Assembly (NCBI GenBank): GCA_016931225.1
Contig: JAFGFE010000010.1
Location: 1 to 64,000, forward strand
DNA length: 64,000 nucleotides
Direction: 5' to 3'
DNA from: Candidatus Zymogenaceae bacterium
GTDB lineage: Bacteria > Desulfobacterota > Zymogenia > Zymogenales > Zymogenaceae
In this document: one piece after another, positions 28,616 to 32,049 of the stretch
How positions within the stretch are numbered: the stretch's first letter is position 1
How the letters are laid out: the number at the start of each line of letters is the position of its first letter
Position numbers and translations under genes: made by a program
The notes under the pieces: generated by a model
What the model was told of the DNA's origin: nothing
Databases searched by the model: none
The model's input: the letters and a program-made list of their open reading frames with translations, nothing else

Positions 28616-29257
28616 ATGGCGTATAAAGAAAAAGAAACCAGACTGAGCGTATTCCGTGAATACGCCGAGGCCATCACCATCGCCATGATGCTGGCGCTTA
28701 TCATCAAGGCGTTTATCTTTCCCAGCTTCATGGTCCCCACCGGCTCCATGATACCCACCATACTCGAGGGAGATCGGTTTTTTGTCAACAAATTCGTCTT
28801 CGGCACCCGCATTCCGTTTTCGGATGTAAAGGTGCTTGCCATTCGGGAACCGAGACGGGGCGACGTCGTGGTGTTTGAGTATCCGGAAGACAGGCGGATT
28901 CCCTATATCAAACGGGTGATCGGGCTGCCGGGCGATACGGTGGAAATCAGGGACAAGCGGGTATATATCAACGGTGAGGAGTACTTCGTAGAGAGCGAGA
29001 TACACTCGGATCCTGACATTGTGCCTGGCGAGCGGGATAATTTCGGCCCGATCGTCGTTCCCCCCGATTCCTATTTCATGATGGGGGACAACCGGGACAC
29101 CAGCGTGGATTCCCGCTTCTGGGGTTTTGTTCATACCCAGGAGTTGACCGGAACCGCACAATTGATATACTGGTCATGTGACATCCAGGCGGGGGGCTAT
29201 CTCGCCCGCTTTGCCAATATCCGCTGGGATCGTATTGGAACCATAATCAACCGCTGA
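28616..29257 (+). CDS. lepB: Signal peptidase I, copy 1
   Basis: Signal peptidase I removes signal peptides from exported proteins at the membrane outer face. This 213-residue copy has an N-terminal anchor (about 16-36), the catalytic Ser44 in PTGSMIPT, the catalytic Lys99 in YIKRVIGLPGD and the MGDNRDTSVDSRFWG box. The start ATG (28616) matches that of copy 2. An upstream GTG/ATG would add two residues. It is nearly identical in protein sequence to copy 2, and the downstream noncoding DNA is also similar, so the pair is a recent tandem duplication. Confidence 0.95.
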   Translation: MAYKEKETRLSVFREYAEAITIAMMLALIIKAFIFPSFMVPTGSMIPTILEGDRFFVNKFVFGTRIPFSDVKVLAIREPRRGDVVVFEYPEDRRIPYIKRVIGLPGDTVEIRDKRVYINGEEYFVESEIHSDPDIVPGERDNFGPIVVPPDSYFMMGDNRDTSVDSRFWGFVHTQELTGTAQLIYWSCDIQAGGYLARFANIRWDRIGTIINR

Positions 29258-29440
29258 GTGTCGCATATATCGGTGTCTTAACGAGCCGGAGACACGTGGA
29301 ATTCTCGATGTGCCGGAAGCCGTGTATCGCCAATACGGTTGAAGCGACGGGCATATACACATTGTGACATCTTATGGTGTGGAAAAACGGGGCGTGTTTC
29401 GGCCTGAAGAGCCTTAATATGAAGTCTGAAAGGTGTGATA

Positions 29441-30082
29441 ATGGCACACAAAGAAAAGGAAACAGAGCTGAGTGTATTTCGCGAATACGCGGAGGCCATT
29501 ACCATCGCTCTGATGCTGGCGCTTATCATCAAGGCGTTTATCTTTCCCAGCTTCAAGGTTCCCACCGGCTCCATGATTCCCACCATACTTCGGGGAGATC
29601 AGTTCCTGGTCAATAAGTTCGTCTTCGGCACCCGCATTCCGTTTTCGGATGTAAAGGTGCTTACCATTCGGGAGCCGAGGCGGGGCGATGTCGTGGTGTT
29701 CGAGTATCCGGAAGACAGACGGGTTCATTACGTCAAGCGGGTGATCGGGCTGCCGGGTGATACGGTGGAAATCAGGGATAAGCGGGTGTATATCAACGGT
29801 GAGGAGTATGTCGTGGAGAGTGAAATCCACTCGGACCCTGACATTATACCGGGGCAGCGGGATAATTTCGGCCCGATCGTCGTCCCACCCGATTCCTATT
29901 TCATGATGGGGGACAATCGAGACAACAGTCAAGATTCCCGCTTCTGGGGATTTGTCCATACCCGGGAGTTGACCGGAACCGCGCAATTGATATACTGGTC
30001 ATGGGACATTCAGGCGAAAGGGTATCTCTCCCGATTTGCACATATCCGCTGGGATCGTATTGGAACCATAATAAACCGTTGA
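29441..30082 (+). CDS. lepB: Signal peptidase I, copy 2
   Basis: 213 residues, with Ser44 in PTGSMIPT and Lys99 in YVKRVIGLPGD, and the box MGDNRDNSQDSRFWG. Most differences from copy 1 are conservative, and every catalytic element is intact. The ribosome site GAAAGGTG is stronger than that of copy 1. It probably has the same activity, either a dosage increase or early divergence. The 183 bp between the copies contain no other gene. Confidence 0.95.
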   Translation: MAHKEKETELSVFREYAEAITIALMLALIIKAFIFPSFKVPTGSMIPTILRGDQFLVNKFVFGTRIPFSDVKVLTIREPRRGDVVVFEYPEDRRVHYVKRVIGLPGDTVEIRDKRVYINGEEYVVESEIHSDPDIIPGQRDNFGPIVVPPDSYFMMGDNRDNSQDSRFWGFVHTRELTGTAQLIYWSWDIQAKGYLSRFAHIRWDRIGTIINR

Positions 30083-30289
30083 GTGTCACATACATCGAAG
30101 CGTTGACATAATGACCGACAACAGGTGGAACGTGCGGAAGACTTCTCTCTTTCGTTTTCAGATAACATTTGAAACAACGTATGCATATGCATCGCGACAT
30201 CCAGTGCTGTGGGAAAAACCGTCCTTAATCAACAAGATGCCGCCGCACCCCGGGACCTCATTCAGGATGACATTTGCCGGGAGTATCCA

Positions 30290-30955
30290 TTGAGCACGGA
30301 GTCGCGGGCGAAGGAGACGACACACGCCGTCCATGCCGTCAGGGAATTTGCCGAGATCATTGTCCTGGCGCTGATAATCGTGCTGGTCTGTAAAACGCTG
30401 GTATTCCAGACATACAGGATTCCGAGCGAATCGATGGTACCCACCCTTTACCCCGGAGACCAGATTCTCGTCTGTAAGTGCTCCTACGGCGTTCCCGTTC
30501 CCTTTACGGATGTTTTCATTTTCGGATTACGCGAGCCGTCCCGGGGGGATGTGGTTGTCTTCAAATTCCCGCCGGATCATCGTGTTCACTATATTAAACG
30601 GCTGGTCGGAATGCCGGGGGATACCATCGAAATCAAAAACAAGGTGCTGTATGTCAACGGCGAGGTGTATGACGTGGCGGAGGCACAATATATAGATCCT
30701 CTGGTGATGCCGGGCGTCGTCAGCCGACGGGACAACTACGGACCGATCACCATCCCTCCCGGCGCATTTTTCATGATGGGTGATAACCGAGACAACAGCA
30801 ACGATTCCCGCTTCTGGGGATTGGTCCGGGAACACGAAATCATCGGTCGTACCGTAATGGTGTACTGGTGCCGGGATACCGGAGACGGCGGATTCCTCGG
30901 CCGCCCCGCCCACATCCGCTGGGATCGCATCGGAACGATCCTGGTCCACAGATAA
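30290..30955 (+). CDS. lepB: Signal peptidase I, copy 3
   Basis: 221 residues from a TTG start at 30290, chosen because GGGAG lies 6 bp ahead. A GTG at 30209 in frame lacks a site. The catalytic Ser48 is in PSESMVPT and Lys103 in YIKRLVGMPGD, with MGDNRDNSNDSRFWG downstream. A Cys-rich patch (VCKCSYG) follows the active-site serine, unlike copies 1 and 2. It is clearly older than the copy 1/2 duplication, and the ancestral order of the four genes is not known. It is followed 4 bp later by copy 4. Confidence 0.93.
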   Translation: MSTESRAKETTHAVHAVREFAEIIVLALIIVLVCKTLVFQTYRIPSESMVPTLYPGDQILVCKCSYGVPVPFTDVFIFGLREPSRGDVVVFKFPPDHRVHYIKRLVGMPGDTIEIKNKVLYVNGEVYDVAEAQYIDPLVMPGVVSRRDNYGPITIPPGAFFMMGDNRDNSNDSRFWGLVREHEIIGRTVMVYWCRDTGDGGFLGRPAHIRWDRIGTILVHR

Positions 30956-30959
30956 CGCA

Positions 30960-31562
30960 ATGATAGAAAGAGGTCACCGGTTCTTTTTTGCCTTCTGCCT
31001 CTTCTGCGGATTCCTTTTTCTCCTGTTCGTCTGGCTGTTTGAAAATATCTACGTGACCGCTTCGGGCATGGAGCCGGCGGTCAGTCCCGGCGATTACCTC
31101 CTGGTGCTTTCTCCCGGGGGTCGGTGTTTTTTACCGGCGGCACCAGTACTCTGCGACGTCTCAACCCTGAGGAAAAACGACCTGATATATGTCAGAACCC
31201 CCGATGAGGACAGACGGCGTGTGATTCTGAGGGTTGTGGGATGTGCCGGTGATGAGGTGATGATCGTCGACAAGACGCTTTTTATCAACGGAGTCCCCCA
31301 AGAGGAACCGTATGTGACCTTTGACGATCCGGAGATATATCCCCGGGATTTGTCTGTCCGGGACAACTTTGGTCCGGTGGTTGTGCCGGACGGGGCGGTC
31401 TTCGCTCTGGCCGATCATCGGGATAGTATGGGTGACGGGCGTTTTTTCGGCTTCATCGGAGACGAGCATCTCAGGGGCCGTGTGCTGCTTTGCTACTGGT
31501 CCCGGGATCTGACCGGGCGGTTCTACTCCGTCAGATGGGAACGTGTGGGGAAATCCTTTTAA
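30960..31562 (+). CDS. Signal peptidase I-like pseudoenzyme, copy 4
   Basis: 200 residues that align with the lepB copies over the whole length: N-terminal anchor about 8-28, then ASGMEPAVSPGDYLLV, ILRVVGCAGDEV and ADHRDSMGDGRFFG. The residue that should be the nucleophile Ser is Gly36 (a Ser at 35 is shifted by one), and the general-base Lys is Leu90. Both catalytic residues are therefore missing. The frame is intact over 600 bp and the fold motifs remain, which suggests a kept non-catalytic role rather than fresh decay. Possible roles are binding signal peptides or modulating the other copies. It lies 4 bp after copy 3, so it is co-translated. Confidence 0.82.
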   Translation: MIERGHRFFFAFCLFCGFLFLLFVWLFENIYVTASGMEPAVSPGDYLLVLSPGGRCFLPAAPVLCDVSTLRKNDLIYVRTPDEDRRRVILRVVGCAGDEVMIVDKTLFINGVPQEEPYVTFDDPEIYPRDLSVRDNFGPVVVPDGAVFALADHRDSMGDGRFFGFIGDEHLRGRVLLCYWSRDLTGRFYSVRWERVGKSF

Positions 31563-31665: not shown

Positions 31666-32049
31666 ATGGATAGAATAAGACGAACGTTTTTTTCCCAGCG
31701 CGGTGAAGGACGGGGAAAGACGTTTGCGGTGATCATCGTCATCGCCATTATTGTTTACGCCGCAGCGAAATTCTTCCCGCCGATTAAAACACATATGGAT
31801 CTGAAAAAAGTTGTGGAAGAATATATGTGGTCAAACGGCGGCGGGAGTGAGGAAATAATTCTGGAAAGATTGTCGCCGAGAATTGCGGCAGTGAAAGAAG
31901 ATCTGGGTCGGGATGACATCGTCATTGTCAAGAAGGGCAACCAGAACTATGCCATGATCGATTACACGGAAACGGTTGTGCTTATACCGGACATGTTCGA
32001 ACACGAGTTGAAATTTCACGTTGAGGGCTTCAGTAAACCCCAAAAATAA
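31666..32049 (+). CDS. Membrane-anchored DUF4845-like protein
   Basis: 127 residues with an N-terminal basic segment, one transmembrane helix (about 19-38) and a soluble mixed alpha/beta domain facing outward. The layout and position right after lepB genes resemble DUF4845 proteins, which sit beside lepB in many proteobacteria and whose function is unknown. AGGATGAAATT precedes the ATG. The family call is by context and shape, not by a firm motif. It could cooperate with the signal peptidases, but this is inference. Confidence 0.55.
   Translation: MDRIRRTFFSQRGEGRGKTFAVIIVIAIIVYAAAKFFPPIKTHMDLKKVVEEYMWSNGGGSEEIILERLSPRIAAVKEDLGRDDIVIVKKGNQNYAMIDYTETVVLIPDMFEHELKFHVEGFSKPQK

What the first reader, a model, noticed from the sequence alone, without database searches (positions are those of the whole stretch)
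28616..31562. Four tandem signal peptidase I paralogues ending in an apparent pseudoenzyme
Four lepB-like genes lie head to tail. Copies 1-3 have the catalytic Ser and Lys (44/99, 44/99, 48/103). Copy 4 aligns over its full length but has Gly36 at the nucleophile position and Leu90 at the lysine position, and keeps its reading frame and fold motifs. A maintained inactive member beside active copies suggests a regulatory or substrate-selecting role. A set of diverged signal peptidases next to a DUF4845-like gene may serve a special exported substrate class.
Basis: partly seen in the sequence, partly recalled or inferred. Interest (0 to 1): 0.7.

Follow-up and report, generated by a model that had tools for sequence, protein, structure and literature searches.

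The report
Conserved dead signal peptidase in array
A little-known bacterial lineage (Zymogenia) keeps, right next to its working protein-export scissors (signal peptidases), a sister protein whose cutting residues are gone but whose shape is preserved in every genome of the lineage I could search, which suggests that it helps rather than cuts; the similar dead copies I know of are all from Gram-positive bacteria.

Summary
Four signal peptidase I genes lie head to tail and are the only ones in the genome. Copies 1-3 keep Ser/Lys; copy 4 has Gly36 and Leu90 there. The genome belongs to Candidatus Zymogenaceae (Zymogenia, Desulfobacterota). All four Zymogenia genomes held carry the array downstream of rfbD, each ending in a copy-4 orthologue 4-76 nt after an active copy. 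The orthologues form a private clade. The Lys column is Leu in 4/4; the Ser column is Gly, Ser, Val, Gly. Scaffold residues are kept, while dyad and pocket residues are preferentially changed. Synonymous sites are near saturation while proteins stay 35-58% identical: purifying selection, though weaker than on active copies. A model (pLDDT 84) has the signal-peptidase fold; its best target-normalised match is the dead S. pyogenes SipA (TM 0.80). Copy 4 is therefore most likely a maintained pseudoenzyme, although one orthologue (G001) has lost its C-terminus. Its likeliest role, inferred only, is non-catalytic partner of the adjacent active peptidase. The special-substrate idea is not supported: copies 1-2 are 90% identical, the context is housekeeping, and a related DUF4845-like gene also flanks an ordinary lepB elsewhere. 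Precedents: SipA and SpsA, both Gram-positive.

The parts
28616..29257 (+). active signal peptidase I, copy 1 (213 aa; Ser44 codon 28745-28747, Lys99 codon 28910-28912)
   Evidence: PF10502 174.7 bits; Ser and Lys in column; 1 TM helix
29441..30082 (+). active signal peptidase I, copy 2 (213 aa; Ser44, Lys99), recent tandem duplicate of copy 1 (90% identical)
   Evidence: PF10502 176.9 bits; dN 0.054, dS 0.42-0.50 against copy 1; repeat families
30290..30955 (+). active signal peptidase I, copy 3 (221 aa from TTG 30290, preceded by GGGAG; Ser48, Lys103); a longer frame runs from GTG 30209
   Evidence: PF10502 172.4 bits; dyad intact
30960..31562 (+). copy 4: signal peptidase pseudoenzyme, 200 aa, starts 4 nt after the stop of copy 3
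   Evidence: PF10502 94.8 bits; Gly and Leu in the dyad columns; AlphaFold2 model pLDDT 84.1, signal-peptidase fold; gap 4 nt
31065..31067 (+). Gly36 codon (GGC) in the place of the nucleophile Ser (E. coli Ser90)
31227..31229 (+). Leu90 codon (CTG) in the place of the general base Lys (E. coli Lys145); Leu in 4/4 orthologues
31666..32049 (+). small membrane protein, remotely DUF4845-like; follows the array in G000, G002, G003; about 3 kb away in G001
   Evidence: custom HMM; Pfam DUF4845 only sub-threshold in relatives from G001 and G033

Best explanation
Copy 4 is a conserved, catalytically dead signal peptidase I paralogue (pseudoenzyme) private to Zymogenia. It arose by duplication of an active peptidase gene before the known Zymogenia diverged. 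It first lost the general-base Lys (Leu in all orthologues) and then its Ser (still present in one), while keeping the membrane anchor and the fold. It is made together with an active signal peptidase encoded immediately upstream. The most likely way it works is as a non-catalytic partner: anchored in the inner membrane with its domain outside, it pairs with or sits beside the active peptidase and changes its stability, activity or presentation of preproteins. Shown here: gene array, dyad loss, predicted fold, orthology, synteny, purifying selection. Inferred: loss of activity in the protein itself, order of the two losses, co-transcription, physical pairing and any effect on the active copies.
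For: Same gene order in 4/4 class members, the copy-4 orthologue always last and 4, 8, 21 or 76 nt after an active copy, with no terminator-like site in the 4-nt gap of the window. The orthologues form one clade with 100/100 support, and active Zymogenaceae copies another; a joint clade is not rejected, p-AU 0.59. The orthologue profile scores 302-350 bits on the four and at most 189 bits on anything else in 395 phylum genomes. Leu in the Lys column 4/4, and the Lys-supporting Ser278 changed in 4/4. Of 50 columns at least 95% conserved in 60 active enzymes, those of the catalytic pocket are changed in two or more orthologues in 9/11 against 12/39 elsewhere, Fisher p 0.003; pocket residues taken from own knowledge of E. 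coli LepB. dN 0.31 (G002/G003) with synonymous sites saturated; 1.8-1.9 times the dN of the active copies for the same genome pairs. Fold: SipA 4n31 TMt 0.80, SpsB and LepB also matched. Precedents: S. aureus SpsA is inactive (PMC12445088); S. pyogenes SipA is inactive and required for pilus assembly (PMC4049620).
Against: No evidence of a physical complex; SipA itself showed no detectable binding to its pilin or sortase (PMC7900414). Only four genomes, all drafts. The G001 orthologue keeps Ser and ends about 18 residues early at a TAG. Pocket residues Val132 and Phe84 are also replaced, so binding of ordinary signal peptides may be lost. Long branches (G000_4 3.75) leave the position of the clade relative to the active Zymogenaceae copies unsettled.
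Confidence: 0.5

Rival explanations
1. SipA-like assembly factor: copy 4 does not act on the signal peptidases but binds a particular exported protein and presents it to another enzyme or assembly.
For: The model's best target-normalised match is SipA. SipA is the one dead signal peptidase with a known requirement, pilus polymerisation (PMC4049620).
Against: No sortase or exosortase in the four genomes. The conserved neighbours are dTDP-rhamnose and pyrimidine genes, no dedicated substrate gene. The S1/S3 pocket is altered.
Confidence: 0.25
2. Decaying duplicate: copy 4 is on its way to a pseudogene and has no function.
For: Faster evolution than active copies (about 1.9 times dN); very long G000_4 branch; C-terminal truncation in G001.
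Against: Retained in 4/4 genomes of three genera at 35-58% identity, with synonymous sites near saturation and 45 invariant columns, 35 of them carrying the majority residue of the active enzymes.
Confidence: 0.12
3. Copy 4 is still a protease, with other residues in catalysis (Ser35, another base, or substrate-assisted).
For: Ser is kept in G001; non-canonical bases (His) exist in ER-type signal peptidases (own knowledge).
Against: Ser35 is Pro in the three other orthologues; no His is conserved; the only conserved Lys (K105) is also conserved in active enzymes and aligns with E. coli Lys214, not with the dyad.
Confidence: 0.06
4. Some of the copies are an assembly or binning artefact.
For: The genome is a 46-contig draft; copies 1 and 2 are 90% identical.
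Against: dS 0.42-0.50 between copies 1 and 2 is far from an assembly duplicate; the array recurs in three other assemblies.
Confidence: 0.02

Closest known systems
Streptococcus pyogenes SipA/LepA (pilus islet signal peptidase-like protein; PDB 4n31)
   Same: Signal peptidase I fold, one membrane anchor, both dyad residues replaced (Asp48/Gly85), Lys-contact residues relaxed too (Gly272->Asn, Ser278->Arg in SipA; Ala and Met in copy 4); homologues in other streptococci appear to keep the dyad, much as G001 keeps Ser (PMC4049620).
   Different: SipA lies in a pilus operon with a sortase and is Gram-positive; copy 4 lies in a signal peptidase array with no sortase in the genome, carries Gly/Leu, and by sequence is closer to active signal peptidases than to SipA.
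Staphylococcus aureus SpsA (beside SpsB)
   Same: Inactive signal peptidase I homologue lacking both catalytic residues, in a genome with an essential active one (PMC12445088); adjacency of spsA and spsB is from own knowledge.
   Different: SpsA is dispensable and of unknown role; different phylum; in Zymogenia the dead copy is last in an array with up to three active copies.
Type I signal peptidase LepB/TIGR02227 (MEROPS S26A)
   Same: Full-length profile match and fold; copies 1-3 are ordinary members.
   Different: Copy 4 lacks the Ser90 and Lys145 equivalents and much of the pocket.

Membership tests
Type I signal peptidase (S26A), as an enzyme | Signal peptidase I fold / PF10502 full-length match | tested here: met
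   Copy 4: 94.8 bits, profile 4-168 of 168; Foldseek to SpsB, LepB, SipA, E about 1e-9 to 1e-7
Type I signal peptidase (S26A), as an enzyme | Nucleophile Ser in box B | tested here: not met
   Copy 4 Gly36; orthologues Ser, Val, Gly. Copies 1-3 meet it
Type I signal peptidase (S26A), as an enzyme | General-base Lys in box D | tested here: not met
   Leu in 4/4 orthologues. Copies 1-3 meet it
Type I signal peptidase (S26A), as an enzyme | Cleaves signal peptides | not testable with these tools
   needs an assay
SipA/LepA pilus assembly factor | Signal peptidase fold without the dyad | tested here: met
SipA/LepA pilus assembly factor | Encoded in a sortase/pilin operon | tested here: not met
   No sortase (PF04203) in any of the four genomes; neighbours rfbD, signal peptidases, pyr genes
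SipA/LepA pilus assembly factor | Closest sequence relationship to SipA | tested here: not met
   Weaker to SipA (E 1e-6) than to active signal peptidases (E 8e-11); next-best profile matches are active Desulfobacterota enzymes
SpsA-like inactive signal peptidase | Dead homologue encoded beside an active one | tested here: met
   Copy 4 is 4-76 nt after an active copy in 4/4 genomes
SpsA-like inactive signal peptidase | Orthology with SpsA | not tested
   SpsA sequence was not fetched; independent origin is expected from the lineage-restricted clade
DUF4845 (gene 31666-32049) | PF16137 above gathering score | tested here: not met
   No match for the window gene; 19.9 and 18.1 bits (cut-off 27) for the G001 and G033 relatives

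The most novel reading that the evidence does not exclude
Zymogenia have a hetero-oligomeric bacterial signal peptidase: a catalytic SPase I subunit plus an obligate dead SPase I subunit encoded as a coupled pair, analogous to (but independent of) the multi-subunit eukaryotic signal peptidase complex, in a diderm bacterium where signal peptidase I is thought to act alone.
Probability: 0.25. Interest if true: 0.7.

Novelty: new variant of a known kind. Interest (0 to 1): 0.42.

Why it matters
Dead signal peptidases are known from a few Gram-positive bacteria and their function is unsolved. This is a separately evolved, lineage-wide case in a Gram-negative-type lineage, in which the likely order of loss (Lys first, Ser later) can be read from the orthologues and the dead gene is coupled to an active one. 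That makes the question 'what does a dead signal peptidase do?' testable in vitro with a defined pair of proteins. If the pair forms a complex, bacterial signal peptidase I is not always a one-protein enzyme.

Tried and rejected
Realignment with Ser35 as nucleophile: rejected (Pro in the three other orthologues, no Lys). Copy 4 as assembly artefact: rejected (orthologues in three other assemblies). First genome-contig scan with copy 4 alone found nothing; the profile scan found only Zymogenaceae. Other Desulfobacterota with several signal peptidases (22 genomes): only G347 has a tandem pair, both active; one K->M case (L097, G201) is a single-genome change, its family relatives (G418, G407, G401) keep Lys. 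Sortase/exosortase link: none. First structure model with 9 sequences was poor (pLDDT 60), repeated with 23 sequences (pLDDT 84). First pocket table was numbered one residue off and was redone. Pairwise dS for copy-4 orthologues is saturated, so a reliable dN/dS value cannot be given, only that dN is far below dS. Papers on Zymogenia: none in the held library. No defence-family match.

Full report
OBSERVATION. The window holds four signal peptidase I genes in a row on the + strand, 28616-31562. All four match PF10502 over the full profile (174.7, 176.9, 172.4 and 94.8 bits) and TIGR02227 above its cut-off. They are the only PF10502 matches in the 3.73 Mb, 99% complete genome. Copies 1-3 have the Ser/Lys dyad; copy 4 has Gly36 and Leu90 in those columns. 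Copies 1 and 2 are 90% identical (dN 0.05, dS 0.42-0.50), a recent duplication; copy 3 is about 50% and copy 4 about 30% identical to them.

WHERE IT IS. A profile of copy-4 orthologues found two named records, Candidatus Zymogenus sp. and Candidatus Zymogenaceae bacterium, so the genome belongs to Zymogenia. In the taxonomy used here that is a subclass of Deltaproteobacteria; I call the phylum Desulfobacterota from own knowledge. Only four genomes of the class are held: the window's (G000) and G001-G003.

ORTHOLOGUES. All four carry the array downstream of rfbD: 4 copies in G000, 3 in G001, 3 in G002, 2 in G003. In each, the last gene is a copy-4 orthologue, starting 4, 8, 21 and 76 nt after an active copy. 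The Lys column is Leu in 4/4 ('LRVVG'). The Ser column is Gly (G000), Ser (G001), Val (G002), Gly (G003). G001's gene ends about 18 residues early at a TAG.

A PRIVATE CLADE. Searched against 395 genomes of the phylum, the orthologue profile scores 302-350 bits on the four genes and at most 189 bits on anything else. In a tree with 48 other Desulfobacterota enzymes, the four form one clade (100/100) and the active Zymogenaceae copies another (100/97). A joint clade is not rejected (p-AU 0.59), but long branches leave the exact attachment open. Because copy 4 always sits beside active copies, local duplication is the simplest origin (inference). All 52 comparison sequences from other Desulfobacterota keep both dyad residues. 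Among 22 genomes with several signal peptidases, one sequence (L097, K->M) departs, and its nearest relatives keep Lys. So sporadic loss occurs, but a fixed loss was seen only here.

SELECTION. For the same genome pairs, dN of copy 4 is 1.8-1.9 times that of the active copies (0.31 vs 0.16 for G002/G003; 0.60 vs 0.33 for G000/G003; 0.51 vs 0.27 for G001/G003), while synonymous sites are at or near saturation. Codon positions differ by 0.31, 0.22 and 0.58 in G002/G003. That is purifying selection, weaker than on the enzymes. Of 50 columns at least 95% conserved in 60 active enzymes, those belonging to the catalytic dyad, its support and the S1/S3 pocket (list from own knowledge of E. coli LepB) are changed in two or more orthologues in 9/11, others in 12/39 (p 0.003). 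At a threshold of three or more orthologues the difference is not significant (5/11 vs 8/39, p 0.10). In active Zymogenaceae copies, changes at the pocket places are rarer (9/48 cells against 32/48 in copy 4). Kept in 4/4: Met91, Gly98-Asp99, Arg146, Gly152, Arg-Asp-Asn 255-257, Asp273, Arg275, Asp276, Asp280, Arg282. Changed in 4/4: Lys145, Ser278, Pro87, Val132, Asn274, Trp284. The protein has kept its fold and lost its chemistry.

STRUCTURE. A model from 23 sequences reaches pLDDT 84.1 and pTM 0.81: one N-terminal membrane helix, then the signal-peptidase beta domain. Its PDB matches are SpsB, LepB and SipA; the highest target-normalised TM-score, 0.80, is to S. pyogenes SipA 4n31, itself a dead signal peptidase. 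SpsB chains carry a fused maltose-binding protein, so their target-normalised score is not comparable; query-normalised scores are equal (0.56).

MECHANISM. Shown: array, dyad loss, predicted fold, orthology, synteny, purifying selection. Inferred: copy 4 is inactive; it is co-expressed with copy 3 (4-nt gap and no intervening terminator-like site); it acts as a non-catalytic partner. I prefer a partner of the active peptidases over a SipA-like client chaperone because the constant immediate companion in all four genomes is an active signal peptidase, and there is no sortase or exosortase. SipA's own mechanism is unsolved (PMC7900414), so precedent does not decide it. The altered S3 wall (Val132 to Tyr/Leu/Phe/Phe) argues against simple competition for ordinary signal peptides.

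CONTEXT. Neighbours are housekeeping: an LptD-like protein, dTDP-rhamnose genes and rfbD upstream; pyrR, pyrB, pyrC and a transglutaminase-like protein downstream (names other than transglutaminase from own reading of the sequences). The small gene at 31666-32049 has relatives in G001-G003 and beside a single ordinary lepB in G033. Relatives match DUF4845 below cut-off. In many proteobacteria a DUF4845 gene follows lepB (own knowledge), so this neighbour is not a sign of a special substrate.

KNOWN. Dead signal peptidase I homologues are known in Gram-positive bacteria: SipA (PMC4049620) and SpsA (PMC12445088). I found no described case in a Gram-negative lineage, but the library is open-access only and the search limited. 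Hence: a new variant of a known kind.

Noticed in passing
L097 1435-2028 (genome G201, Desulfobacterota family f25): A solitary extra signal peptidase with Ser kept but Lys replaced by Met (KEFVMRVVALSG); relatives in G418, G407 and G401 keep Lys, so it is a single-genome change or an error.
   Followed up: yes
L095 1444-2139 and 2138-2758 (genome G347): Another tandem pair of signal peptidase I genes in a different Desulfobacterota family, both with an intact dyad.
   Followed up: partly
L036 9168-9845 and 9873-10556 (genome G002): The two active copies of G002 are 75% identical (dS about 0.5), so recent duplication of active copies seems to have happened separately in G002 and in the window genome.
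   Followed up: partly
L035 8063-11232 (genome G001): About 3 kb of unrelated genes sits between the truncated copy-4 gene and the DUF4845-like gene; an insertion or rearrangement here may have removed the C-terminus of copy 4.
   Followed up: no
active copies of Zymogenaceae, column of E. coli Asp142: The residue three before the catalytic Lys is His (Pro in copy 1) in the active Zymogenaceae enzymes, but Asp in 52 of 52 other Desulfobacterota enzymes compared; possible shift in substrate preference.
   Followed up: no
L125 1381-1947 and 1950-2489 (IMG/VR contig): Two signal peptidase I genes in tandem on a short contig classed as viral.
   Followed up: no
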